Assembly (NCBI GenBank): GCA_036939355.1
Contig: JALLAP010000301.1
Location: 1 to 22,195 of the forward strand
Source of the DNA: Thalassiosira profunda
Lineage: Eukaryota; Bacillariophyta; Thalassiosirophyceae; Thalassiosirales; Thalassiosiraceae
Length of the DNA stretch: 22,195 nt
Direction: 5' to 3'
In this document: positions 1,118 through 17,944 of the stretch, piece by piece
How positions within the stretch are numbered: the first letter of the stretch is position 1
How the letters are laid out: each line of letters opens with the position of its first letter
Notes under the pieces: generated by a model
The model's input: the letters and a program-made list of their open reading frames with translations, nothing else
What the model was told of the DNA's origin: nothing
Database searches by the model: none
Translations under genes and position numbers: made by a program

Positions 1118-1236
1118 ACAGGTAAACTGCGAGCAATTAAGCGAATGAATTCTTTGCAATTTGCTGCAATCTGTTGCAATAATTCTATCTTTACGTGCAG
1201 TGCGTGGATCGATCTACGATACCCCACAACGGTCCT

Positions 1237-1901
1237 TCAATTTATCAGCTTCCTCGCCTTGCCGTTGCCGTGCGACGCCGCCTTCAGCTTCTTCTCCATC
1301 TTCTCGTGTTCGGACAGCGGATCGTGCGCCTTTTCCGCCTTGCCATGATGGCGCTTTCTAGGCCCATCAGTAGGGCCCGTGCCGCCGGATGTGGTGGGCT
1401 GGGTGCCACTCGCGGCCTTGCCGTGCCTCCGCCTCCTGCCAGATTTCTCCTTCCGGCCACCGCCCTTCTTCTTGTGACTGCCACCTCGCCCTTTCCGCTT
1501 CTTCTTTCCGTCCTCTTCGTGCTCCATGTGTTCCATATCGTGTTCGACATCGCCCATTAGATGCTCGACTTCTGCCGCCATCTCGGCAATTGCAGGCTCC
1601 ATCCCATTCAACGCCCCGACCGCCTTCTCCAGCTTCTTCTCCTGTTTCTCCGCGTTCTCGCCAGTGACGCCAAGATCCCGCTCTCTCCCAACGAGCTGCC
1701 GGCGGAATCTGTCCTGGTTCTGTTGGGAGTGGCAGGTGCGATGAACACGTTAGAGGCGACGGCTAGGTTGCTATGGAGACGCTGGGGTATCCTGGGGTAT
1801 CCTAGAGGCTCTGCGAGCAAACACTAACTCACATCATTCTCGACAGCCTGGGCGGCGCCGACCGCGGCCAGCGCCAGCAGAAATGCGGCGATGTGCTTCA
1901 T
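1237..1901 (-). CDS. Secreted polycationic, His/Met/Glu-rich protein, two exons
   Basis: Exon 1 (1901-1833) encodes exactly 23 residues, MKHIAAFLLALAAVGAAQA plus VEND, a clear signal peptide with an AQA cleavage site. A GTGAGT donor and a CCAACAG acceptor remove intron 1720-1832, and exon 2 (1719-1237) continues in phase 0 to a 183-residue product. Residues 44-75 are a charged helical segment. Residues 75-93 are His/Glu/Met-rich (EHLMGDVEHDMEHMEHEED), a plausible metal-binding stretch. From 95 to the end the chain is dominated by Lys, Arg, Gly, His and Ser, with runs such as GKKKRKGRGGSHKKKGGG. No domain family is recognised. Secreted polycations in silicifying or calcifying algae can bind cell-wall polymers or minerals, so a silaffin-like or wall-matrix role is possible, but that is inference. 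It diverges from the DUF4954-like gene. Confidence 0.75.
1782..1805. repeat. Short tandem direct repeat inside an intron
   Basis: The unit TGGGGTATCC occurs twice back to back in the intron of the secreted basic protein gene. It has no apparent coding role. Confidence 0.6.
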
Positions 1902-2388
1902 TGTGCGAAGAGGATATCAATAGTATCAGTTGATCGTTCGATGCCCGCTTGCTTTTGGTTGCAGTGGTGAAAAGTGAGGTGCGATATGAGCATGGGATGT
2001 GCACAAGATGCACAACATGTGTGTGTGAGCAGCGGATCCTCCTCCTCTCATCTTTGCCAGGTTGCTGTGATTCATCCGGGGTGCGCCAAGGAAAATTTGA
2101 CCGCTGGTTAAGGATGGGATGGCGGGGAGGGGGGTCGGGAGCGCCGATTTTGTGAGTTGAAAAAAGTTGCTGCTCGTAAGGTAGGTACTAATTCCTACGC
2201 AGTCGGTATCCTTTTAGCGGCTAACTCGAGAGACCAGCCCCCCTCCGGCGCGCCGCCTCTCACAATCCTGCCTGCTAGAGGTCAGAGTGGCCCGCCTCTT
2301 CCCAACCCCAACATCCTCCACGGCCGCCACACTACCGCGCGGCGGGTCCGCCATCCAGCACCTCTCGCATCCGAAGTAGGCTTCGAAG
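1902..2388. promoter_or_regulatory. Divergent intergenic region (487 bp)
   Basis: This stretch separates the start codons of the secreted basic protein (-) and the DUF4954-like protein (+), so it must hold both promoters. It contains a G-rich tract around 2113-2146 and a TAGGTACTA motif near 2182 of a type that recurs in other intergenic parts of the window. I see no convincing TATA box and no RNA gene. Confidence 0.4.
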
Positions 2389-4726
2389 ATGAGCGACGTC
2401 CTCGCCCCCTTCCACCAAAGCCGCGCGGCGCGGCACGCCTACCTCGCCCGCACGCAGGCTCTCCTGTCCGCCCTCGATGCCGCCCAGGATGCGACGGTCG
2501 TCGCGCTGCCCAACCTCGAAACGGGCAACGAGCGCCGGCCGACGTCCACGTACGTCATTCGGCCGTTGTCGGGGAAGGAGCGCGCGACGCTGTTGGGAGA
2601 GTGCAACTGTCGCTTGGCGGACGACAAGACGGCGATCAAAGCGATGTACCGCGTGGCCGGCAACGGCGAGGGCAGTACTATGGCCAACTGGGATCTTTCC
2701 AGCTCGCTCAAATCGCAGGTGCGGAGCACCACCTTCGGCGGGAAAGTGCTCCTCGGTATCCTGTTGGATGGGCCTGATGCCGTCAAAGACTCGGTGCCAA
2801 GCAGTCTGAGCAAATTGGTGGGCGTGAGCAACAATGGGTTGATTCAGAACTGCATCTTGGAGCCGGGGTGCTCGGTGCACAAGAACTCCGAGGTGGCCAA
2901 TTCGCATGTGATGAAGTACGCCGCGGTGATTGGCTGTGGCACCGTTTCTTGCTCGGAGGAGGCGGCGGCAAAGAGCAAGAAGAAGTTCAACTTCGACATG
3001 GCCGAGGGATCGATGGACGTGGAGGTCGGTCCGGAAGCGGGTGGAGGCAGGGTGGTCAATGCGAAAGTGGAAAGGTGCGTTTACCTTTGTGCGTTGTCTT
3101 TTTGTACGATGTAGGTATGCTTTGCACTCACATCTCATGTCACGCAACGTCGAACTCTCTGTCTATAGCACGATGGTGGACGTCTGCCGCGATCTCAATA
3201 TGGATTCCAACGGTGGCACCGTCGCCCCGCTTGTTTCCTTCGCCCAGTCCAACGTCGCATCACCGGCAATGAACCTACTGTGCCCCCATTCCTCCATCAT
3301 CCACACCCCGAAAGCTAGCCACGTCCATCTGCTACCACATTCGACGGTCGATTCCGCCACCTCTGTTACGTCGGCGCTGCTGCTTCCGAACGCTGCAATC
3401 AAGGACGGATCCACCGTCTCTCACGCGCTGCTCCAGTGGGACTCCACTATCACCTCCCAATCGGACGCGCACCACGTCTTTCTCATGGAACGGTCAGAGG
3501 TGGGGCCACACAGCTTCACCGCCAATGCCATCTACGGCCCAGACTCGCACGTGAGCGGTGGCGAGGTGCACTGCACGATCTTCGGGCCGAATGCCAACTC
3601 TCACCACCAGAGCTTGCTTATTGGCATTCTGTGGCCGTTGGGACGAGGGAATGTGGGCTACGGAAGCAATGTCGGAAGCAACCACACTGGACGGATCCCG
3701 GACCAGGAAACGAGCGTCGGCGAGGGCACCTTCTGGGGACTGGGCAGCGTCATCAAGTTTCCTGTGGATCTCACCTCGGCGCCCTACTCCATCGTGGCGG
3801 CCGGAGTCCAGCTGCCTCCGCAGCGCATCACCCTCCCGTTCTCGCTGATTACGGACGGTCCCGGCGGGATGAACCAGCTGACGCCAGGTTGGCTGCTCCA
3901 GTACAGTCCGTACACGATCGCGCGGAGCGAGGTGAAGTTCGCCAACCGGAGGAAGGCGAAGCGGCACGATTTCTACACGGGATGGAAGATACTGCGGGCG
4001 GGCATGATGGACTTGCTCGTCGACGCGAGGGATTCGTTGGTGTATGCTGGCAAGAGCCAGTCGGCAGGCGAGGGCGCCAGCTCGAAGAAAGTGGTGTTCA
4101 AGACGGACAAGGCCATACCGGGGCTTGGATCCAATCAGCTGACGGAGAAGGGACGGCAGATTGGCGTGCGGGCGTACACGGACGCCATCCAGCGGTACGC
4201 TTTGCGTGGGCTGTTGGATCGACTGGTTCAGTTTGCAAAGAACGGAGGGCAGGTTTCGTTGAACACTGCTCTGAGACACGTAGAATTGAACGGCATCAGT
4301 GGAGGCGCGCTTGAGGCAGCAGTTGCCACGCCTTCCAAACCCATTGTCAACTGGCCGGTGCTTCCGTGGAACGAGGCGTCCCACACGGATTCCAACGCCG
4401 AATGGAAACACCAGCACTCGATGCTTCTCAAAGAGCTACCGTCCATCCTTCGTGGAGGAAGTTCGAACGACGGCGACGTCCTCTCGCAATTGCTGCAAAA
4501 GTGCATGGCCCTGGAAGACGACCACGCCAAGCGGGTGTACAAGAGCAAGTCCCGCGACGATGCCCGCGGAGGAAGCACCGTCCCGGGGTACAGCGATGTG
4601 CACATCCCCGCAGAAAAGGATTCAGTGGTGCTGGCTGCGAAGGAGGAGTCAGATAAAGTCACCAGCGATGCCCAGCTGGTGAAGGAGGTTCTTGGACTGG
4701 GCAGCATTGTGCGAAGTCGTTTGTAG
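2389..4726 (+). CDS. DUF4954-like left-handed beta-helix protein, two exons
   Basis: Exons 2389-3074 and 3169-4726 join in phase 2 (donor AAAG|GTGCGT, acceptor CTATAG|C) to give 747 residues. The sequence is rich in short hydrophobic hexad-like turns with Gly/Asn, as in left-handed beta-helix acyl- or nucleotidyl-transferase folds. Residues about 361-400 (GEVHCTIFGPNANSHHQSLL, then GNVGYGSNVGSNHTGRIPDQ) and about 453-492 (LPFSLITDGPGG, then SPYTIARSEVKFANRRKAKR) match, from memory, the conserved core of DUF4954 proteins known mainly from Bacteroidetes. Shared features are a GP..xxHHxSxLIA turn, a long Gly/Asn stretch, an FPFS-like step, and WPNRDRRKG-like basic residues before a helical region. 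DUF4954 has no established reaction that I know of. The C-terminal 250 residues are helical and charged and end ...LGLGSIVRSRL. No targeting peptide is evident at MSDVLAPFHQ, so a cytosolic location is likely. Length is close to the roughly 680 residues of the bacterial family. Confidence 0.72.
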
Positions 4727-5017
4727 ATACTTACTCATAGGAGATTAGATGTTGAGGAGGTAGGGTTGCACATGGCTCCAACCTAGCAGGTACCTAACGG
4801 CTAAGTGGTACTTACTCTACGTAGCGACTCCACAAGTTGCTCTCTGTAACGCAGGCCGGGAGCCCCCCACGTTCAGCGCGCTGACCCAACCAAGCCGCGC
4901 CAAACCACGGAGGGAACGGTTCCGGGCGGGAGAGAGATAGGCGGGTGTATAGCGGGGTTGTAATTCAGTGGAGGACCGAGGAGAGGGTTTGTGGCGCTCG
5001 GTGCATGTGCGTTGCAG

Positions 5018-6280
5018 ATGCCAACAATGGCACGAAGCACGATGCGCGAGAAGTTGCAAACGAAGCTGGCGAATGGAAATGGCGTCCCCTCGCCACCCGC
5101 CCCTGCATCAGGGGGGCAGGTCAATAAAATGCTGGTCCTTCTGCTCTTCGTGATGGTGGCGCTCAATATCTATCAGCAAACATCGTCGGCGGGGCTGTAT
5201 GCAACGTCAAACGACGATGAATATTACTATGAAGCGGACGAGGGCAGAGAAGAGGACAGCAGAGTGCACGTAGAGGAGCAGAAGGTGGACGAGGACGAAG
5301 CGGATCGCATAATACGACGGTCTTACGACAGCTCCTACGCCCACATTCTGCCCTGCCGAGAAGGCGTCGACGGCAAGGCGTGCATGGCGAAGACTCTGGA
5401 GTATTTCAACCCCCCGCCGGAGGCGAATATAACCGTGCCGCCAATTCCTTGGTGGTTCCAAACGCTATTGCGCGATGCCCAAAGCAACGGCGTGTACGGG
5501 TTTTGGCACCACTTCTACACAACGCAGCCAGCCTTCAACTTCTGTACGATTGGCAAGGTGGCGACGACAGAGTGGCGGAGGGTGTTTTGCAGGCTCAACG
5601 CCGACGAATGCACGGTCCCGGGATCGTGCGGCAAGAGAAATTGTATTTGGCGAACAAGGAAAGAAATGCCCGAGGGATCACCCTGGGCGGTATTCTTGCG
5701 CGATCCGTTGGAGAGATTGTTATCGGGCTTCCTCGATAAATGCTACAAGCCGAACGTCCGGCGAATCGAGGGGCACTGCGAGCCCAACGTCGTATTCAAT
5801 GCCGGCAAGGATTTGGTGGATCGCAAGGGCAATTTGTATCCATCGTTGACGAAGGGCCTCGAATCACACGACAAGCAGTGGTTTGCAGCCTACGTGGACG
5901 CAATGCCACTGAAATGGAACGTGCACTTTACACCACAGGCTTTGGCCTGCGACCTGTATCGAAAGCTTGACACATATGATTTCGTGGGAAACATGGGCCA
6001 GGACTTTATGTTAGACCTCGAGCGAATGGCAGATCGATACGGCGGGCCACTCCCGGAAATTCTTAACGCGAGCTTCGATTACATGGACAAGGTGAAGACC
6101 GGGAAGAAGAATACCGGACTCGAAGGACGGTTCCACTCGACGCACGCTCCGGCCAAGGTGCAGCAATTCTACACGGCGCAGACAGTGCGGAAGGGGCTGG
6201 AGATTCTATCAATTGATTACGTCACTCTGGGGCTGAAGGTACCGGAGTGGGCACGTCAAATGTTGCGAGACGATTCATAG
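5018..6280 (+). CDS. Golgi-type carbohydrate sulfotransferase, single exon
   Basis: A single open frame of 420 residues from ATG 5018; an upstream in-frame GTG at 4991 is not needed. Topology is type II: a short basic N-tail, a membrane anchor at about residues 38-52 (MLVLLLFVMVALNIY), an acidic stem (about 64-100) and a lumenal catalytic domain. The 5'-phosphosulfate loop of PAPS-dependent sulfotransferases is seen at 176-188 (CTIGKVATTEWRRVF), with Lys180 and the TT pair. The 3'-phosphate site is at 226-237 (FLRDPLERLLSGF), with Arg228 and Ser236. Several Cys residues (CTVPGSCGKRNC and others) suggest lumenal disulfides. Enzymes of this type (Sulfotransfer_2-like) move sulfate from PAPS to sugars of wall or secreted polysaccharides; the acceptor cannot be read from sequence. 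Its stop codon lies 20 bp from that of the convergent secreted Cys-rich gene. Confidence 0.82.
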   Translation: MPTMARSTMREKLQTKLANGNGVPSPPAPASGGQVNKMLVLLLFVMVALNIYQQTSSAGLYATSNDDEYYYEADEGREEDSRVHVEEQKVDEDEADRIIRRSYDSSYAHILPCREGVDGKACMAKTLEYFNPPPEANITVPPIPWWFQTLLRDAQSNGVYGFWHHFYTTQPAFNFCTIGKVATTEWRRVFCRLNADECTVPGSCGKRNCIWRTRKEMPEGSPWAVFLRDPLERLLSGFLDKCYKPNVRRIEGHCEPNVVFNAGKDLVDRKGNLYPSLTKGLESHDKQWFAAYVDAMPLKWNVHFTPQALACDLYRKLDTYDFVGNMGQDFMLDLERMADRYGGPLPEILNASFDYMDKVKTGKKNTGLEGRFHSTHAPAKVQQFYTAQTVRKGLEILSIDYVTLGLKVPEWARQMLRDDS

Positions 6281-6300
6281 ATGGTTTGTTTGCAATACAT

Positions 6301-6924
6301 TTACTCATTCTTCGGGGCCCCGACCACTTTATTGCCATCGACGCGAAGCAACACTCTACTTTTGTCTTCCGGATTGCTCGCACTGCCGATTGGCGGACTC
6401 GCGTAGCAGTCGATGCGATGACCGTTCACATCCCTGTCAGGAACAGACGCACGTATCATCTTGCAGCACTGCCGGACCGTTAAGGGAGTGCCCACATTAC
6501 AATCCCAGGGACCAATATCGTAGCAGTCATCGGCTGTCTTGCACCACTGCCAGGGATAATACACCAAGCCGTCCCCGTTCACCCCAACCACCCCCGTCTC
6601 CTCCACATTCGTCCGGAGCCCCACCTTGTAGTAATTGGGCTGGTCGCGCGTTCGTATTTGATGCACTTCGTAGTTCAGATGGTCTCGGCCCTCGAAGACG
6701 CCGGGGTATTTTTCGACGTCCTTCTGGATCAACTCCTCGCACTTCTGGATGCCCCGGCCCTTGCACTCCTCGAACTCGACGGTGAAGTGCATGAGCTCCC
6801 GTTCGTCCGCCGGCCGGAGTTTCCGGGCGCCCTCGCCTTTCCGTTGGCCCGCCCCCCGCAGCGCGCCGACGGGCAGCGCCAGGGCCGCCGCGACGACAGC
6901 CGCCGTGGCCGTGGTTCTCCGCAT
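6301..6924 (-). CDS. Secreted cysteine-rich protein of unknown function
   Basis: One exon encodes 207 residues from the ATG at 6924. The N-terminus MRRTTATAAVVAAALALPVG followed by ALRG is a signal peptide. The mature part has eight Cys: two near the front (ECKGRGIQKCEEL) and six in the second half, arranged as C-x5-C-x7-C-x10-CC, then one more after VNGHRID. An even number and this spacing suggest four disulfides in a small extracellular or lumenal fold. A Trp/Tyr-rich strand (VYYPWQWC) precedes the Cys cluster. I do not recognise a family. It shares a 194-bp divergent upstream region with the PNPase gene and converges with the sulfotransferase gene, so their 3' untranslated regions almost certainly overlap. 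Confidence 0.75.
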   Translation of the reverse strand: MRRTTATAAVVAAALALPVGALRGAGQRKGEGARKLRPADERELMHFTVEFEECKGRGIQKCEELIQKDVEKYPGVFEGRDHLNYEVHQIRTRDQPNYYKVGLRTNVEETGVVGVNGDGLVYYPWQWCKTADDCYDIGPWDCNVGTPLTVRQCCKMIRASVPDRDVNGHRIDCYASPPIGSASNPEDKSRVLLRVDGNKVVGAPKNE

Positions 6925-7118
6925 GGCTCTGTGTTGCTCTGCAAGTCTGCGTCGGTGAAACTGGAAAATGAGGATGACCCCGAACCATCCCCACTTTTGC
7001 AAGTTTAGGTTAGCCAATAACTCTAATAAGGATCCAAACCACCACAGCCACACAAACACAAACCCAAAGCCTGCCCTCGCCACGCCCGCCACGCGCCTCC
7101 CGCGCCGCGCTGCCGGCG
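6925..7118. promoter_or_regulatory. Short bidirectional upstream region
   Basis: Only 194 bp separate the start codons of the secreted Cys-rich gene (-) and the PNPase gene (+). Both core promoters and both 5' untranslated regions must fit here. The right part is very GC-rich, while the part around 7010-7030 is AT-richer (TTAGCCAATAACTCTAATAAG) and includes a CCAAT sequence. No further element can be defended. Confidence 0.4.
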
Positions 7119-10100
7119 ATGATCCCCTCCCGCGCCGCACGGCTCCGGCCGCCGCGGCCGCAGGCGGTGGCTCCATTTTCTTCGCGCCGCCGCTGGTCCT
7201 CGACAACTCGCGATGGCGATGGGCAGTCATCCGCACAACACGTGCACCGACGACCCATCATCGCAATGGGCGGCCCATCCCGGGCTTTGGGAGTGGCAGG
7301 GAACCCGTTCGACGCCTCTCGCACGGGTTTGGCAACCGCATCCTTCCGTCGGAAGGAAAATTGCAACCCGCGGCGACTCCTGAGCACGGCGAACGAGGAC
7401 GATTTTGATATACCCCCTCTGGACCTGTCGACTCCGTCTCTGTCGATTCCACTGCCGCCCAATTTGCTCAAGGAGAAGGAGAGCCGGGCGAAAGCTGCGG
7501 GTGCTGTTGCAAATGCCAGCTTGGAGACAAATCGGTCTGTTCCTGAAGTGGCGCCGCCAGAGACGGACACCCCCCCTGTCAAGCTGGTAGGCGACACACT
7601 TCCGCTTCCGCCCCCATCCGCAGCATCCACCGCCTCGGCACAAATCCCAGACACGTTCGCACCCATGGACGAAGCTCCAGGCGGATCCTTGAGCTCGGGG
7701 ATAGGAAACATGAAGGGCAGATTGACCGACGGCCGGCTTGCGACCGACCTAAGGGGGGATCTGCGGGGGGCGCTGACGGGCACGGAGCGACCAAAACAAC
7801 CCACCGCAAGTATGACTGCAGCAGAGAGAAAGGAGCACTTCGAGGAACTGAAGAGAAATAACGCCGCGGAATTCGCGACATGGTACCCCTCCCTGACCGC
7901 TGAAGGGCCGCCGCCACTCAGTGGGACCCGTCGCTTGATGGCCATGGCCAAACTGAACAAGGAAATTGCCGAGATGGAGAAGGAGTTCCTATCCAGCGAT
8001 GATGGCGATCTGTGGAAGTTTGGTTCCCGCCTCCATGGGAAGATGCGGGACGTGCACGTGCTGCGCGAGTGCGGGGCGACGCCGAACCAATTCAACAAGA
8101 GAATCCAGACAATTTACAAAAACGCCCAAGGAAAGGCTATGCTGCTTGGGTTGCAGAAAGAATATTATGCCAAGTCTGGCATGGTCGGCGATGATTGGCC
8201 GGGGAATGCATTGGAATCTACGCTTCGGTCAGAGCCTGTTATTTCCTCTTCTGTGAGCCCAAAAGAGGGGGTGGACCCACTAAAACAACCCACCGCAAGT
8301 ATGACCGTAGCTGAGATGAAGGGGCACCTCGAACAGGAGAAGGCACGTTACGCCGCGGATTTCACTACATGGATCACCGCCCTGACCACTGAGGGGCCGC
8401 CGCCACTCAGTGGTACTCGTCGTTTGAAGGCCATGGCCAAACTGAACAAGGACATTGCCGAGATCGAGAAGCAGCACCTCGCTGTCAGTGATAGTGAAGG
8501 GGGGAAGTTGATTCCCCGCCTCCAGAGGAAGATGCAGGGAAAGCGTCTGCTGCGCGAGTGCGGGGTGACGCCTACTCAATACAAGAACTTGCGCAAAAGG
8601 TACAAAGGCGGGCGACGAAAGGCCGTGCTGCTTGAGTTACAGAAACAATATTATGCCCAGTCTGGCATCGTCGACGTCGATTGGCCAGTGAGTGCGTACG
8701 CGAGTTTGGAATCGACGCTTCCGACGGAGCCTGGTTCTTCCTCTGCTGTCCAACCGGCGGTCCCGGTTGCACTGGCCCGACCTCAACCAGTTTCCGCACC
8801 GCGTTTAATGGGGCTGGGGTCCTCCCCCGTTCCCGCCTTCGTGGGAGATTTGATCACCACGCAGGCCGATGGAACGATATTGGGACACGCCGGGAGCACG
8901 AGCGTCCTCGTCACCGTCGTTCTGGATGGCGCCACCCCTTCCACCCCAACAGGGATCATTCCAAGAAAGGAAGAGGGCGGTTTGGAGGTGGACGCGGAGC
9001 AAAAGCCAGCAGCGGCCCAGAAGCTTCTTATGGAGGCCATCGAAAGGGCCGACGCGCAGTCGGGGGCGTCGTTTGTTCCGCTGCAGGTGGAATATCGCGA
9101 GCGATACCACGCCTCGGGCAAGATCCCCGGAAATCGACGCCGGCGGGACAACACAGGCGCGCTGTCCGACAAGGAGGTATTGTCGGCGAGGGTGGTAGAC
9201 CGGACTGTGCGTCCCTGGCTGATGATGGGGTTGGCGTCGCCTTCTTCCGGCGGTGCATTGCCGGAAAACATCGTGGTCAATTGCGAGGTGCAATCGTACG
9301 ACCCGCGGCCCTCCGCTGACGATGCCTCGCTGGACCGGACGCACGCGGATCCGACGGCGCTGGCCATCAACTCTGCGATTGCAGCTCTGTATCAATCGTC
9401 CTACTCCAATCCTCACCCTAGCCTTCCAGTCCCTGCGGAAGCAGCAGCTTGCGTCAAGCTTGCCGTCATGCAGGATGGTGCAGTGGTGTTCGACCCCACG
9501 CAAGAAGAATTGGGCGAGTGCCAGTTCGAGCTCCTCTACGCTGGAACCAAGGCTCGCACCTTGATGCTGGAATTCTCTGCGAACGGGGGCCCGCCATTGA
9601 ACAATGCGGAGCATCCCCAAGATCCAGGCATTGCCGAGGGAAGCGTGACCAGTGCACTGCGTTTGGCGCACGAGGCCATTCTTCCTATCATCGAGAAACA
9701 GGAGGATCTCCGGGAGACATACACACAGGAGGTCGAGTTGATGGCGCAGGAAAAGGACGAGGGCTTGATGACAGACGAGGAGGTGGCCCAGTTGCTTGGA
9801 CTGGACTCGTTTGGAGCAGCGTCAACAGTGAGCGAGGGTCCGTTCGCCGACGTGGATGGCATTGCGATCGTTGACGAGGCGAATGCCTTTGTTTGGTCGA
9901 GGTTGGAGGATGTGGCAATGAAGCTCTTTGGATGCAGTGGTGGGCAATCCAAAAGCCTCGCTTCCGATGACTCGGCTCGCATTCACGAAGGCAGTCTTTT
10001 GTCGAAGAAAGTCCGTGGCCGCAGAGAGAATGTGCTGCAAGCCGAAATCTCGAGATTACTCCGTGAGGAGTTCATGCCAAACGACGAAGGGCTTGCCGGC

Positions 10101-13100
10101 GTATATCGCACCGCCATTCGTGAGGGCGAGGGCTCGGAATGCCTCGTCAAATTGTCGCATCACGTCCACGAGTGCACGATGAAGAGGGCCATGACAGAAT
10201 GCGCCGCGAGGAAGCTTCGCGCTGATGGGCGCCCGGGACTCAACGTCGTGCGGCCCATAGCCGCAACTGCTCCGATTTTTCCGGATTCGGTCCACGGATC
10301 GGCGCTCTTCTCGAGGGGCGAGACGCAGGTCTTGTGCACAGCGACGATGGTGAGTAGACAGAGACGGGGACGACTCTTTGCGTGGGATTCTCTTTTCTAA
10401 CACTCAGTTCTGCCATTCGTTCTTTAGGGCGCTCCAAGAGAAGGCCTGCCAATTGCTGATCCCTACTCCTTCGAGGGGCAAGGAAAGGAGGAAATACAAG
10501 GCGACGATGAGAACGTTCCCCCCATTGGGAGTCTGCGATTTCTCAGAACTCAGGCCGAAATGGAAGCAGATATGAACACGCGGCGAGTGAAAGCAGGACG
10601 AGAGCTTACGGGCGATTCTGGGGTTTTGAGCGAGGTAGGTGTTGTTCTATGTATCTGTTGCGCTTCGCGAAAGGCTCGCATACCTGAACTGATCAATCTG
10701 GCTTGCGTTGCATGTTGCTTCAGGTGAAGAGGGCATTTCTCCACTACGACTTCCCAGACTTCTCGACGGGAGTGGTAAAGTCAAGAGCAGGGGCATCTGC
10801 CAATCGACGAGGTGAGTGCCTTTGTCTGGCTTAATGAATTTTCTCCCTAGTTCTGGATCTGATGTTGCAAACGCTGTTGGCGATGTAGCCATTGGGCATG
10901 GAAATCTCGCCGAGAAGGCGGTCTTGCCAGCACTACCGCATATCGATGACTTTCCGTACACCATTCGATTGACGAGCGAGGTGACCAGTTCCAATGGATC
11001 GTCGTCGATGGCATCAGCTTGCGGGGTGTCCCTCGCATTGTTGGATGCTGGAGTGCCAATGATTGCTCCAGTTGCGGGCGTCAGTGTTGGCCTTGCCCCA
11101 GGCTCGAACGAATTGCTTTTGGACATTACCGGTACCGAAGACCACTACGGCGATATGGACTTCAAGATTTGCGGAACAGTAAGTGCCTTCTTCGACTCTG
11201 TCGCCAGCGTTACTCTCTATTGGTCANATGGACTTCAAGATTTGCGGAACAGTAAGTGCCTTCTTCGACTCTGTCGCCAGCGTTACTCTCTATTGGTCAT
11301 CTCATCGTTTTGCAACCCATAGCATGGCGGAATCACAGCGATGCAGCTGGATGTGAAGCAACCTCTCCCTCTTGAGAACTTGCTCGCCGCCCTCGACCTT
11401 GCCAAAGAAGGAAGGCGAGCCATTTTGAATGCAATGGAGAACGAATGCCGGAGCACTCTTCCTGGCCTTCACCCGCGACCCTCCCTGAAGAGCACGGCGC
11501 CTCGCGTGGAAGTTATTGCCTTTGATCCGAACAGGAAACGCGACTTGGTCGGCCCCGGAGGAGCAGTGTTGCGGCAGCTCGAGGATCGCTTCGGTATCTC
11601 TCTGGATCTTTCCCAGGAAGGGCGGTGCATCATCTTTGGTTCCCCGACGAGCGTCGCAAAGGCCAAGCGAGTCATCATGGATCTTGTGTCCGACGTCGAA
11701 GTAGGAGGTGTCTACGAGGGCACAGTGATCGAGATAAAGGATTTCGGTGCTGTCGTTGAGCTGCTGCGAAACAAGGAAGGATTGCTGCATGTCAGTGAAC
11801 TCACGGACGACGCGGCGGGAAAGCACCCCGGCGGAAATCTCGGCCTCGTAAAGTCTCACCTGAAAGTCGGAGACAAAATCGAGGTAAGGAAGCCATGGCG
11901 CTGTTCCATCCAGCCGTTCAACTGCAACTGTAACTGATTCTCTCTACTCCTCCTCTCTGCAGGTATTGTGCACCAAAATCGATCATGTGCAAGGCTCCAT
12001 CAAGTTGAGCCGGAAGAAATTGTTGAGGAATAGGACACAAGTGCCGATATCAAAGAATCGAGACGTCGCCAACGGATCGATCANGGAAGAAATTGTTGAG
12101 GAATAGGACACAAGTGCCGATATCAAAGAATCGAGACGTCGCCAACGGATCGATCAATGGCGTGACAACGCCCTACGCCCCAGCCTCGGTAATTGAAGAG
12201 GCGAGCAATGTCGATAGTGACGAACCAGAGGGTGGAGGGGATGCTGAAGAGGAGGACGAAGACTTTGATGAGTGGATCGAAACCAATAGCGAGGATGTCT
12301 ACGATGACGAAAGCGACGAGACTGGCTACAGTTCAGATGAGTCGGATGACGTAGCTGGTGGTGGAGGCGACGACGCCAACGATGTCGATGACAGCGATTT
12401 CATTGAGTTGGATGATGCAGGTTCAGATGAAAGAGTCTCAGAAGCCGCCCCAGATCATGTTTCCGCCTTGGGGGCGCGTTGGATGGAGCGGTTCAATGAG
12501 CTTGAAGACTTCAAGGTAAGTGCGGGGTGCCCTTCCCATGGTTACAAGCTGCGTACCTGCTCACACTGTTCTCTCTCCAGAAACAAAATGGGCATTGCAA
12601 CGTTCCACGAACTTCTGGACCACTTGGCGGGTGGGTCAAAACACAGCGCAGGGCCCACAAAGAAGGGAAAATGCGGGACGATCGGAAGCAACGCCTCGAG
12701 GCAATTGGATTCGAGTGGACTGTGGGGGTGGGAACCACCAGCTCATACTCAACGCTACAACACGACCTTTGGGATCAGCGATACCAAGAACTGATCGACT
12801 TCAAGCGAGAGAATGGCCATTGCTTGGTCCCAAAGAGTGCTGGATCCCTAGGGCGTTGGGTAAGCACACAGCGCCACGCCCACAGAGAGGGAAGCATTCT
12901 GGAAGACAGAAAAGAACGTCTCGAGGCAATCGGGTTCGAGTGGACATTGGGGTCGGGCACCACCAGCTCAAGGCTCCAAAACGACCTTTGGGATCAGCGA
13001 TACCAAGAACTGATTGACTTCAAGCGAGAGCATGGCCATTGCATGGTCCCAGCACGCGCTGGATCTCTTGGAAAGTGGGTCGGTCGTCAGCGCGATCGCT

Positions 13101-13219
13101 TCAGAGAGGGAAACATTCTGGAAGACAGAAAAGAACGACTCGAAGCCATTGGCTTTGCATGGAGCGGCCTGGCGTCTACGACTGGTGCGGGCGGTGACAA
13201 CGACGACGATGAAGCTTGA
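7119..13219 (+). CDS. Polynucleotide phosphorylase with N-terminal tandem domains and C-terminal HA repeats
   Basis: Seven exons: 7119-10349, 10428-10634, 10724-10811, 10889-11178, 11323-11883, 11963-12515 and 12581-13219. After removing a 73-nt artefact in exon 6 they encode about 1831 residues, roughly twice a usual PNPase. PNPase phosphorolyses RNA 3' to 5' and can also add tails. In order: an Arg/Ser-rich presequence ([20 protein letters not shown]), suggesting mitochondrial import; two unknown repeats (about 226-362 and 388-523); RNase PH 1 (from about 575); a helical domain; RNase PH 2 (from about 1036); KH with GPGG at 1349-1352; S1 (about 1400-1480); an acidic linker; and three helicase-associated (HA) repeats starting near 1608, 1683 and 1756. 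Active-site residues are present: NRR (1173-1175), SNGSSSMAS, and [12 protein letters not shown] with Asp1260, Asp1266 and Lys1268. An extra segment of about 45 residues sits in RNase PH 2 after [12 protein letters not shown] plastid location cannot be excluded. Confidence 0.88.
7793..8700 (+). repeat. Tandem duplicated domain in the PNPase N-terminus (489-nt period)
   Basis: The block starting AAAACAACCCACCGCAAGTA at 7793 recurs at 8282. Both copies encode about 135 residues sharing [39 protein letters not shown] and DWP. DNA similarity is high over much of the unit, so the duplication is fairly recent. The fold is unknown; the copies look helical and basic. Confidence 0.85.
11155..11299. 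repeat. 72-nt direct copies around a single N (assembly join 1)
   Basis: Positions 11155-11226 and 11228-11299 are identical, with N at 11227. The repeat spans the exon 4 / intron 4 border of the PNPase gene, so a second, false copy of the exon end (MDFKICGT) appears. Removing one copy leaves an intron of 71 bp, normal for this gene. Confidence 0.95.
12012..12156. repeat. 72-nt direct copies around a single N (assembly join 2)
   Basis: Positions 12012-12083 and 12085-12156 are identical, with N at 12084. The join lies inside PNPase exon 6. As written it shifts the frame by one and stops translation just after the S1 domain; collapsing it restores one frame into the acidic linker and HA repeats. 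Confidence 0.95.
12590..13175 (+). repeat. Three helicase-associated (HA) repeats
   Basis: Three units of about 60 residues follow the pattern W-x5-L-x2-FK, then GHC-VP, then G-L-G-W-x3-QR, then DRK-RLEAIGF-W, which is the HA domain seen in many algal proteins and some bacterial helicases. Units 2 and 3 start at 12764 and 12983 (219-nt period). They share nearly identical DNA such as GACCTTTGGGATCAGCGATA, so they are a recent duplication. The first unit is split by the 12516-12580 intron. Confidence 0.85.
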
Positions 13220-13932: not shown

Positions 13933-14676
13933 ATGAAGTCCGCCGCTATCTGCCTCTCCCTGGTCGGCGCTGCCGCCGCCTTCGCCCCTGCTCCCACTCA
14001 GGTGTGTGTCGGTGTGGGTGCATCGTGAATGTTGTTGCAAACGCAGGCGTCGATTCAGAGAGATGCCCTTTGCAAACTAATCTCATACTCCGTTTCTCCC
14101 CTGACTCCACAGCGGGCGAGCACGCAGGTGTCGCTGACTCTCGACGAGCTCGGCGGCGGCTCCGCGCCCCTCAAAAACTACGACCCCTTCAACCTCGCCG
14201 AGTTCGGGAGCGACGAGACCCTCCGCTGGTTCCGCGCCGCCGAGCTCAAGCACGGCCGCTGCGCGATGGTCGCCACGACGGGATACCTCGTCAACGCCGC
14301 CGGCATCCACTTCCCCGGCATGCTCTCGAGCGACATCAGCTTCGAGAGCCTCTCGACCATGAGCCCCCCCGAGGCGTGGGCGGCCGTCCCGACCGCCGGG
14401 AAGGCGCAGATCCTTTTCACGATTTTCGTGGCCGAGCTCGTGTCGGAGGGATACCAGGGCACGCACTACATGAAGGGTGGGGAGTACCCGACCATGGTCT
14501 TCCCGAAGATCGACTTCTCAGGCGTTAGCAAGGAGACGATGGAGGTGAAGCGAACGAGGGAGCTGAACAACGGACGCCTGGCCCAGATTGCCATCCTTTC
14601 GTTCATTTCGGCGCACTACATTCCGGGATCGGTGCCCGCTCTTACGGAGGCGCCGTTCAACGCGGGGCACTTCTAA
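13933..14676 (+). CDS. Fucoxanthin chlorophyll a/c-binding light-harvesting protein, two exons
   Basis: Exons 13933-14001 and 14113-14676 join in phase 0 into 210 residues, the usual size for FCP antenna proteins. Exon 1 is the plastid presequence: signal peptide MKSAAICLSLVGAAA followed by the AFAPAP motif, whose Phe is needed for import across the inner plastid envelopes of red-lineage algae. Helix 1 carries the chlorophyll-binding motif AAELKHGRCAMVA (Glu67 to Arg72). The third helix has RELNNGRLAQIAI (Glu173, Asn176, Arg178), and a middle helix (KAQILFTIFVAELVSEGYQG) lies between. The protein binds chlorophyll a/c and fucoxanthin in the thylakoid membrane and passes energy to the photosystems. 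The helix-1 'W-F-R-A-A-E-L-K-H-G-R' form resembles Lhcr/Lhcx-like members more than the core Lhcf type, but the subgroup needs a tree. Confidence 0.92.
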
Positions 14677-15189: not shown

Positions 15190-16798
15190 TTAATCAGCCA
15201 GCAAGTCTTCGTCGGCAAACGAGTCTTCGTCCAAAGCCTCCGTGGCCACAACAACCTCCACAGCAGGCCCCACCACCTTCTCCACAGGGGGCGAGTCCAG
15301 CCCGTCCGTGAGCAGCTCCTCGTCGTCGCTGTCGCTCGAGAACTGCGCCTCCACGGGCGGCACCGCCTCCGGTTCCTCCGGCACCACGTCCGCGCCAGCG
15401 GCAGACTCGTCCAGACCGGAGGTGAGCAGCTCCTCGTCTCCCTGATCGTCCTGCGCCTTCGGGGGGACCAAAGCGCTCTGGTTGATGGAGTTGACGGAGG
15501 CGTCCACGGTGATGTCCCCGACGAGGTTTCCTTCGTCGTCCACCGCAATGTCGTCGTCCTGCGTGGCGTACATGACCTTGAAGATGGAGTCCATCACCCG
15601 AGTCACGTCGCCGCTCCCCGCCTCAGCCTCCTCGTTTTCCTTGTAGACCTGCAGCATGACCTCGATGCCCCGCAATTTCTCAAAGTAGAAATCCCGCTCG
15701 CTCTCGATGGTGTTCAAGTTCATCTCCATTTCCGACGAGGCGAGCTCCAGCTCCGAATACTTCGTCGTCAACGCGGCAGTCTCCGATTTGAGCGCGCGGT
15801 TCTCCTCCTCCAGCTTGGCCACCTTGGCCGCACTGGCCGCCGAGGTGGGGGCGCCGGCCTTGCTCCGCGGCNTTCTCCTCCTCCAGCTTGGCCACCTTGG
15901 CCGCACTGGCCGCCGAGGTGGGGGCGCCGGCCTTGCTCCGCGGCTGGGCCGGCGGGCGGGCGTTCGCCTTGTTCTCCTTCGAGGCGGCGGAGGATCCCGA
16001 GCCGGGGCGGGAGGCGGTCGAGCGCGCGCTGCCCGTCGAGGCGGCGGAGCGCCCGCTGCTAGACCTGACAGGAGGCGCCCGCGAAGCAGCGGTCGTTCCC
16101 GTCCGCGCGGTGCCCACGCTCCGCGCCGCGCCCGGCCGGGCCGACGTCCCGCTCCGGGAACTCGCCGTCTTGCTCACGCCGACGCCTCCCTTGTTCGTCC
16201 CGACAGCCTTTCCGCCCTTCCCCTTCGCCCGCACGGCCACCGGATCGTACCCCTCCCGTCCTCCCGCCATCATCGGCGCCGTCTGGTCGAAGAACGCCTT
16301 GAGCCACTGGCAGAATTCGAGGTTGTCCTGGTACTTCCCCCGGATCAGCTTGTCCACTGTGGAAAGATATGGTGAGATTGGAATCATTTTAAGGACCGGC
16401 AACTCAGGTCGAGACCACACACCAACTCACCATCGACGTGCTTCTGGATCTTGTTCTTGTTGAACGCGTTCTGGAGGAGCTTGTAATTCCCCACGTACTC
16501 GTGGCTGGATTTGGCCGCCCAGTTGACCCGGGACATCGGGACCGAGCCGGGAAAAATGTATTCGGTCAGCTGGCACGCCACGGCGCCCGAGGCGGTTTGT
16601 TCGATTTTGGAGAGGTTGAGGTCCAGCAGCGTGTTGAGGAAGGTGAGGAGTTCGTTGCGGGACGTGAAGTACGCCCCGTCCATCATTCCTGCGAAGAAGA
16701 GCGAGAGGAGGAGCGGGGTGAGAGCGACATTGGAGCAACGGCACGCACGACATTCACCGACGTCCGCGCTCACCGATAGCGGCGTCCGTGGCTGACAT
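15190..16798 (-). CDS. EB1-family microtubule plus-end binding protein, three exons
   Basis: Exons 16798-16774, 16688-16431 and 16356-15190 (less 73 artefact nt) join in phase to 458 residues, against about 270-330 for most EB1 proteins. The calponin-homology domain starts [20 protein letters not shown]. It includes [20 protein letters not shown], the [12 protein letters not shown] segment and [17 protein letters not shown], all hallmarks of EB1 microtubule binding. A basic Ser/Arg/Gly-rich linker (about 130-225) follows, then a coiled coil and the EB-homology signature [13 protein letters not shown] (from 293) for dimerisation and partner recruitment. The last ~120 residues are highly acidic, with a repeated DEELLT-GLD motif, and end in ADEDLLAD. 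The canonical C-terminal EEY/F is absent. The 25-nt first exon was placed by the exact fit of [14 protein letters not shown] across donor ATCG|GTGAGC. It diverges from the proteasome gene. Confidence 0.93.
15800..15944. repeat. 72-nt direct copies around a single N (assembly join 3)
   Basis: Positions 15800-15871 and 15873-15944 are identical, with N at 15872. The join lies inside EB1 exon 3, at the end of the linker (…[20 protein letters not shown]). It breaks the frame as written; removing 73 nt restores it. Confidence 0.95.
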
Positions 16799-17092
16799 GA
16801 TGAGCAAATCTGATAGAGCGACAGAGGACGATGCAGCTAGCTCGGTGGCGAGCTAGAGAGGGTGGCGGCGGCCGCGCGGGGCGGGGCGCGGCGGAGGACG
16901 AGCGAGTTGCAAGTTGCAAGTGCAGAAAGCCGGTGTTGAACTAACGGTCGTTTTTTGTTGAGGCTGGTGCTTTCACCACGAGAGCTCAGGCCGGCCCCAT
17001 TTCTTCAGCTTTCGGCTCGCTTCGTCTCCGCTCTAGTTAGTCTCCCCTGCCGTCGGCCACCTTTCCCTGCCTCGCCATAGCCCTCCACAACC
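16799..17092. promoter_or_regulatory. Bidirectional promoter region between EB1 and proteasome beta-2
   Basis: The 294 bp between the divergent start codons hold a strongly GC-rich block (about 16860-16898) with a GGGGCGGGG GC-box-like core near 16878. They also hold a GTTGCAA direct repeat near 16905-16920 and a poly-T tract near 16951. The two genes are housekeeping, so a shared GC-rich promoter is plausible, but no transcription-factor site can be assigned with confidence. Confidence 0.45.
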
Positions 17093-17944
17093 ATGGACAC
17101 AGTATTCGGAGTCTCGTATGACGGGGGAGGTGCGTTGGTTCGGCGGTTGTCTGCGTTGGCGCGTAGGAAAGGGCCTGCCCCTCCACTTTTGTGCTCGACT
17201 GCAGATGTGCAGAGATGATGGGGTTGAGCTGCGAAAATGAGCTGCTGCATTTGCAATTGCCCTATATTCGCTGGCATTAATTGCGTATGAGGGACAGGCT
17301 GCAAATTTGCAATCGCATCTCGTGCGTTATATGTTTCTAACTCAAATCATACCCCCCTGCTTTGATGCGCAGTCGTCCTCGCGACGGATCAGGTCAACGC
17401 CCGATCGATCCTCATGTACCAGCAGAACCTCGACAAAATAGCAGAACTCTCCTCGCACTCGGCCATGGGCGTGTCGGGGCCGAACTGCGACCTCGTGAAT
17501 TTCTCAGAGTACGTCTCCAAAAACCTCAAACTCTACGAACTCTCCAACGACGGCATGAAGCTCTCCACCCACGCCCAGGCCAACTTCTGCCGGGGAGAAT
17601 TGGCCAAGGCCCTCCGCAAGGGCCCCTTCCAGGTCAACGTCATCCTCGGTGGGTACGACGAAAAGACCCCCACGGGGGGATCGCTCTACGTGATGGATTA
17701 CCTGGGGAGCTGCACCAAGGCCAAGTACGGCGCGCAGGGGTACGCGTCCAACTTTTGCCTCTCGATCATGGACCGGGATTGGGACGAGGGGATGACCGAG
17801 GACCAGGCCGTGAAGGTCGTGGAGCACTGCATTAAAGAGCTGCAGATGCGGTTTTTGATCAACCAGTCCAATTTCATTGTCAAGGTGATTGATAAGGAGG
17901 GGGTGAGGACGACTTCTTTCGGCGCCGACCCGACGGACAACTGA
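17093..17944 (+). CDS. Proteasome subunit beta type-2, two exons
   Basis: Exons 17093-17129 and 17373-17944 join in phase 1 (GGGGGAG|GTGCGT and TGCGCAG|TCGTCC) to 202 residues, the size of the beta-2-type (beta4 ring position, PSMB2/PRE1 orthologue) subunit. The start MDTVFGVSYDGGVVLATDQV lacks a propeptide and the catalytic Thr, as expected for this non-catalytic subunit. Conserved family features include the DKI-ELS turn, VNFSEYVSKNLKLYELSNDG, AQANFCRGELAKALRKGPFQ, VNVILGGYDE, the YVMDYLGS strand, and a C-terminal ELQMRF-x-NQSNFIVKVIDKEG segment. It builds the 20S core in cytosol and nucleus. The 243-bp intron is the longest clear intron in the window and lies directly after the first 12 codons. 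Confidence 0.93.

What the first reader, a model, noticed from the sequence alone, without database searches (positions are those of the whole stretch)
7119..13219. PNPase flanked by new domains: duplicated N-terminal module and C-terminal triple HA array
Seen: one continuous, phase-consistent seven-exon frame of about 1831 codons, with a complete RNase PH–RNase PH–KH–S1 core and intact active-site residues. Upstream lie about 570 residues with two copies of an unrecognised domain; downstream lie an acidic linker and three HA repeats. Known: standard bacterial and plant organellar PNPases end shortly after S1 and start close to the first RNase PH domain; HA domains are usually found with helicases or as stand-alone arrays in algae. 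Inference: the added modules may tether PNPase to specific organellar RNAs or to a helicase, a single-chain analogue of the bacterial degradosome's PNPase–helicase pairing. This is my best candidate for an undescribed system here.
Basis: partly seen in the sequence, partly recalled or inferred. Interest (0 to 1): 0.85.

Follow-up and report, generated by a model that had tools for sequence, protein, structure and literature searches.

The report
Diatom PNPase with HA-repeat tail
A marine diatom gene joins the RNA-degrading enzyme PNPase to three small HA repeats and to an unfamiliar duplicated front-end domain; relatives share the design, which suggests that these algae built new RNA- or partner-gripping arms onto an old enzyme.

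Summary
Seven GT-AG exons (7119-13219) encode 1831 aa: basic N-terminus, a disordered-looking stretch, two copies of an unnamed helical module, a PNPase core, an acidic linker and three HA domains. Correction: the frame is continuous only if an assembly artefact (72-base duplication plus N, 12012-12084) is collapsed. The fusion is no misjoin: five other PNPases returned by the searches carry 1-3 HA domains behind the core, among them a 'complete' MMETSP transcript protein and proteins of Thalassiosira profunda and T. exigua. They form one branch (88/94, 91/93), next to Cyclotella cryptica, whose PNPase ends in SAP instead. The N-module occurs once in ten other PNPases and twice only here and in the sister haplotype. 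No helicase domain was found in the chain, so a single-chain degradosome is not supported. Most likely the HA tail is an extra nucleic-acid-binding arm of a probably mitochondrial PNPase; the N-terminal parts may dock a partner (inferred). Ten paper searches listed no description. New variant of a known kind.

The parts
7119..10349 (+). exon 1: N-terminus, both N-modules, RNase PH 1, first part of RNase PH 2
   Evidence: residues 1-388 show dN/dS 0.28-0.34 against haplotype C532 and are homologous to P0002 residues 36-449
7119..7298 (+). residues 1-60, basic (11 K+R, 2 D+E), likely organelle presequence (inferred)
7398..7463 (+). residues 94-115, conserved linear peptide [22 protein letters not shown]
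   Evidence: strong form in window, haplotype C532 and 11 of 131 PNPase-like proteins
7794..8282 (+). N-module copy 1 (residues 226-388), helical domain without Pfam name
   Evidence: model mean pLDDT 80.5
8283..8762 (+). N-module copy 2 (residues 389-548)
   Evidence: dN/dS 0.62 between haplotypes
8874..9668 (+). RNase PH domain 1 (about residues 586-850)
10239..11500 (+). RNase PH domain 2 (from residue 1041; interrupted by introns 1-4), [10 protein letters not shown] and NGSSSMAS conserved
   Evidence: dN/dS 0.037 for residues 1041-1272
10428..10634 (+). exon 2
10724..10811 (+). exon 3
10889..11178 (+). exon 4
11155..11299 (.). assembly join: 72-base copy, N, 72-base copy; lengthens intron 4
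11323..11883 (+). exon 5
11518..11682 (+). KH domain (residues 1338-1392), GPGG loop
11695..12016 (+). S1 domain (residues 1397-1477, across intron 5)
11963..12515 (+). exon 6 (contains the second assembly join)
12012..12156 (.). assembly join inside exon 6: 72-base copy, N, 72-base copy; collapsed here for the frame to continue
12171..12467 (+). acidic linker (residues 1505-1603)
12474..12712 (+). HA repeat 1 (residues 1606-1663, split by intron 6)
12581..13219 (+). exon 7 with stop codon
12767..12934 (+). HA repeat 2 (residues 1682-1737)
12986..13153 (+). HA repeat 3 (residues 1755-1810)

Best explanation
It is the nuclear gene for an organellar, probably mitochondrial, PNPase of a Thalassiosira diatom (T. 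profunda or very close kin). The core is a normal 3'-5' phosphorolytic exoribonuclease ring. The C-terminal HA array, on a flexible acidic linker beyond KH-S1, is an extra nucleic-acid-binding arm: three HA per subunit, nine per trimer, raising avidity for RNA or selecting certain RNAs and feeding them to KH-S1 and the channel. The N-terminal helical modules and the conserved 22-residue peptide in front of them most likely dock a partner. Shown: architecture, presence in relatives, one-branch distribution. Inferred: location, trimer, nucleic-acid binding by HA, partner docking.
For: Frame and domains; EDHxGDMDFK and NGSSSMAS stretches aligned to solved PNPases. HA behind the core in P0001, P0002, P0003, P0147 and P0155, one branch with the window at 88/94 and 91/93 support. 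The first HA of each PNPase is closer to the first HA of another species' PNPase (59-74% identity, P0001 set aside as near-copy) than to its best match among 29 HA domains of the own assembly and those of the other listed proteins (45-53%). HA1, HA2 and HA3 have pI 10.3, 8.2 and 9.1. C. cryptica and P0218 have SAP, a nucleic-acid-binding domain (recalled), after S1. In the 21.8 Mb assembly the four other RNase_PH loci match exosome subunits best, so this is the only PNPase seen. Seed-plant mitochondrial PNPases are described with an additional S1 domain and a longer RNA-interacting tail, 'KH-S1-S1' (PMC9181182, passages).
Against: My paper searches touching HA listed no binding data for this domain. 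The whole array is only mildly basic (37 K+R, 31 D+E). For the later repeats the HA kinship does not hold: the second HA of P0147 is closest to a non-PNPase HA of this assembly (62%), and its third shows no preference. P0001 has frame disruptions in KH/S1 and in its second HA and is labelled LOW QUALITY. Haplotype contig C532 ends in intron 4, so HA could not be tested for purifying selection within the species. 79 of 104 PNPase-like proteins reaching the end of S1 have under 40 residues after it, named pennate diatoms among them, so a tail is not needed for the enzyme as such.
Confidence: 0.5

Rival explanations
1. The HA array binds DNA and anchors PNPase to the organelle nucleoid, coupling decay to transcription.
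For: SAP, in the same place in C. cryptica and P0218, is known mainly as a DNA-binding domain (recalled); 76 of the 94 HA-bearing rows among the 120 listed carry helicase families (PF00270, PF00271 or PF04851).
Against: No direct evidence; the enzyme's substrate is RNA.
Confidence: 0.2
2. The HA array or the N-module is a protein dock that recruits an RNA helicase (SUV3-like): a degradosome assembled through the added arms.
For: PNPase pairs with SUV3 in human mitochondria (PMC9181182, passages); a short peptide before the N-module is strongly conserved, as docking peptides often are.
Against: No helicase family in the chain; HA sits in cis with helicases, which does not make it a dock; SAP in the same place suggests nucleic acid.
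Confidence: 0.2
3. The HA repeats are passengers, picked up from a genome rich in HA repeats and not needed.
For: 150 HA matches listed in this assembly, a lower bound; copy number varies 1-3 among relatives; second HA of P0147 resembles a genomic HA and P0001's second HA is frame-disrupted.
Against: HA is in frame in the window, P0002, P0003, P0147 and P0155, all on one branch; first HA of these stays 59-74% identical.
Confidence: 0.08
4. Artefact: the HA exons belong to a separate gene joined by the assembly at 12084.
For: There is a real assembly join (N and 72-base duplication) between S1 and the linker.
Against: P0001, P0002, P0003, P0147 and P0155 show the same order; window 11900-12400 matched one place in the assembly.
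Confidence: 0.02

Closest known systems
Bacterial and metazoan mitochondrial PNPase (RNase PH-RNase PH-KH-S1; e.g. PDB 4nbq, 3cdi, 9njb)
   Same: core order, active-site stretches, KH and S1
   Different: about 585 residues in front and 354 after S1; insertions in the core
Seed-plant mitochondrial PNPase with an additional S1 domain (PMC9181182, passages)
   Same: organellar PNPase described as having a longer RNA-interacting tail
   Different: extra S1 (the passage says 'at their N-termini' and later 'KH-S1-S1') rather than HA array and N-modules
PNPase of Cyclotella cryptica, P0004 (HJC23_001082)
   Same: next neighbour of the HA branch together with T. pseudonana P0121; a linker and a small C-terminal domain after S1
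   Different: SAP (PF02037) instead of HA; no N-module found
SF2 helicases with HA arrays (76 of 120 rows listed); solved HA-type chain 2kta
   Same: HA repeats
   Different: helicase motor instead of PNPase
Human SUV3-PNPase complex and bacterial RNA degradosome
   Same: PNPase as the exonuclease
   Different: partners are separate proteins there; no helicase domain found here

Membership tests
PNPase | two RNase PH domains in one chain | tested here: met
   RNase_PH four stretches, 103 bits; both halves match when scanned apart, RNase_PH_C over cut-off only in the second (34.3 and 17.8 bits, cut-off 20.8); both halves aligned to 4nbq
PNPase | catalytic Asp/Asp/Lys and Ser-rich phosphate site in the second RNase PH domain | tested here: met
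   [10 protein letters not shown] and NGSSSMAS aligned to bacterial PNPases; residue roles recalled
PNPase | KH and S1 after the second RNase PH | tested here: met
   KH_1 24.4 bits (cut-off 21.5), S1 42.2 bits (cut-off 22)
PNPase | trimer, phosphorolysis | not testable with these tools
   needs protein
HA domain (PF03457) | match over curated cut-off | tested here: met
   190 bits, three stretches; six-frame hits at 12575-12712, 12764-12937, 12983-13156
HA-bearing helicase | helicase motor in the same chain | tested here: not met
   no helicase family at E up to 1
RNA degradosome / mtEXO | physical association with a helicase or endonuclease | not testable with these tools
   needs co-purification
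SAP-tailed stramenopile PNPase | C-terminal SAP domain | tested here: not met
   no SAP at E up to 1 in the window protein
known fold for the N-module | clear structural relative | tested here: inconclusive
mitochondrial protein | cleavable presequence and import | not testable with these tools
   only the charge of the first 60 residues was counted

The most novel reading that the evidence does not exclude
Diatom PNPase is a scaffold whose C-terminal end is an exchangeable nucleic-acid anchor (HA array in Thalassiosira relatives, SAP in Cyclotella, none in the pennates named) and whose N-terminal end carries a conserved docking peptide plus a new helical module, so that one covalent chain does what separate scaffold and partner proteins do in bacterial and animal RNA degradosomes.
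Probability: 0.3. Interest if true: 0.68.

Novelty: new variant of a known kind. Interest (0 to 1): 0.5.

Why it matters
PNPase is one of the most conserved RNA-decay enzymes, and its architecture is usually treated as fixed. A lineage that added or swapped terminal modules gives natural experiments on how the enzyme chooses RNAs and partners in organelles, in a group (diatoms) for which my searches listed no study of it. It would also put the abundant HA domain, for which those searches listed no binding test, into a defined enzymatic setting in which RNA binding can be measured.

Full report
WHAT IS THERE. The window is contig C300 of a 21.8 Mb, 1366-contig assembly. Splicing the seven exons gives GT..AG introns throughout and an 1831-residue protein. 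The frame is continuous only after removing a 72-base duplication and an N at 12012-12084; each of the four Ns of the window lies between two exact 72-base copies, which I read as contig ends joined by the assembler. The join at 11227 lies at the exon 4/intron 4 border and leaves the frame intact. Window 11900-12400 matched one place in the assembly.

THE ORGANISM. Contig C532 aligns to window 1190-6983 at 90.6% and to 7047-11209 at 92.2% identity and ends inside the 72-base stretch of the 11227 join. Its translated part (1262 aa) is 99.3% identical over 863 aa to P0001, annotated in Thalassiosira profunda, while the window protein is 85.5% identical to P0001 over 1443 columns. So the assembly is most likely T. 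profunda with two diverged haplotypes; a BUSCO duplication of 26% in a T. profunda genome estimated to be diploid is reported (PMC12159174, passages only).

DOMAINS. Pfam finds RNase_PH (four stretches), KH_1, S1 and three HA domains over cut-off. RNase_PH_C was missing there but shows in the second half at 34.3 bits when the core is scanned apart, and below cut-off in the first half. Against solved PNPases the second RNase PH domain keeps the NGSSSMAS and EDHxGDMDFK stretches. Residues 226-388 and 389-548 are two copies of one module, 58% identical over 157 aligned codons. AlphaFold2 predicts copy 1 as a helical domain (mean pLDDT 80.5, 13 sequences); comparison with solved folds was inconclusive. 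The HA array is modelled as repeated helical units (mean pLDDT 84.9, pTM 0.52, 19 sequences).

CONSERVATION. Two protein searches listed 222 proteins, of which 131 match the PNPase core and 104 reach the end of S1. Five of the 104 carry HA domains: P0001 (T. profunda; three stretches, the second frame-disrupted), P0002 (MMETSP transcript, 'type:complete'; one), P0003 (T. exigua; one), P0147 (three) and P0155 (two), the last two on short JGI contigs. Two more carry SAP over the Pfam cut-off (P0004 Cyclotella cryptica, P0218), and three have SAP below it (P0219, P0220, P0222: 16.5, 19.2 and 19.4 bits against 23.9). Of the 104, 25 have 40 or more residues after S1 and 79 fewer; the median is 9. 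The eight pennate-type rows looked at one by one (such as Seminavis, Fragilariopsis, Mayamaea, Nitzschia) have 2-8. In a 42-row tree the HA proteins and the window are one side of a branch (88/94), in a 21-row tree too (91/93); C. cryptica and T. pseudonana (P0121, a partial model that ends after S1) are the next neighbours. One gain of HA is the simplest reading; support is moderate. The SAP-type proteins outside this group lie far from C. cryptica in the 42-row tree, so SAP was gained twice or lost often. The first HA of each PNPase is most like the first HA of another PNPase, but the second HA of P0147 is most like a non-PNPase HA of this assembly and its third shows no preference, so later repeats may have other histories.

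THE N-MODULE. Ten other PNPases have it once: P0190, P0002, P0019, P0126, P0123, P0011, P0125, P0128, P0157 and P0124. Two copies were seen only in the window and C532 (P0001's model starts inside copy 2). It was not found in P0003 (model starts close to the core) or P0004. In front of it lies a peptide, [22 protein letters not shown] in the window, whose strong form is present in 9 of these 10 proteins (P0124 begins inside the module) and in P0005 and P0024, where the module was not found. A short peptide kept in an otherwise variable region often means a binding site; that is an inference.

SELECTION. Between window and C532, dN/dS is 0.28 for residues 1-225, 0.34 for N-module 1, 0.62 for N-module 2, 0.38 for the short linker after it, 0.31 for RNase PH 1, 0.22 for the middle part and 0.04 for the available part of RNase PH 2; 0.255 over 1257 codons. 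The region in front of the PNPase core thus looks coding and constrained, copy 2 the loosest. The HA part cannot be tested this way because C532 ends in intron 4.

HOW IT MAY WORK. I favour an added nucleic-acid-binding arm: the HA repeats sit behind KH-S1 on a long acidic tether, relatives use SAP in the same place, and the repeats are basic to mildly basic. A longer RNA-interacting tail has a precedent in seed-plant mitochondrial PNPase (PMC9181182, passages). Helicase docking is possible, more for the N-terminal part than for HA, but nothing here shows it. Mitochondrial location is inferred from the basic N-terminus alone.

NOVELTY. Ten paper searches listed, by title and start of abstract, no paper on diatom PNPase architecture or a PNPase-HA fusion. 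I saw listings only, plus passages of PMC12787238, PMC9181182 and PMC12159174. The library is open-access only. I therefore report the architecture as undescribed as far as I could search: a new variant of a known enzyme.

Noticed in passing
window 11227, 12084, 15872, 19095: Four single Ns, each between two exact 72-base copies: probably contig ends joined without trimming the overlap. The one at 12084 breaks the PNPase frame as written; those at 15872 and 19095 lie in other ORFs.
   Followed up: yes
L017 (C532 1-10000): Second haplotype aligned with window 1190-11209 at about 91-92% identity; dS 0.16 in the PNPase gene, high for alleles of one species.
   Followed up: partly
G000, many contigs: 150 HA (PF03457) matches listed in a 21.8 Mb diatom assembly, a lower bound; I did not look at their genes apart from extracting HA domains from 11 loci.
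   Followed up: partly
P0005 525-856, P0024 480-808, P0023 796-874: Other PNPase relatives carry four, four and one copies of a different ~78-aa repeat in front of PNPase; no Pfam match for it in P0005. By eye it recalls winged-helix/LOTUS domains (untested).
   Followed up: partly
P0008 (Attheya), C-terminus: Two Cys/His repeats (CWSHG..CKHSGAICKNKKEGHK) after S1, yet another tail; may be a mobile-element piece or gene-model error.
   Followed up: no
window 2930-4726 +: Long ORF with weak hexapeptide-repeat (GlmU-like) and DUF4954 matches.
   Followed up: no
window 4964-6280 +: Sulfotransferase-family (PF03567) ORF.
   Followed up: no
window 14029-14676 + and 17366-17944 +: Chlorophyll-binding light-harvesting protein (PF00504) and a proteasome subunit (PF00227).
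   Followed up: no
window 16387-16836 -: Calponin-homology match below cut-off; perhaps an EB1-like protein (guess).
   Followed up: no
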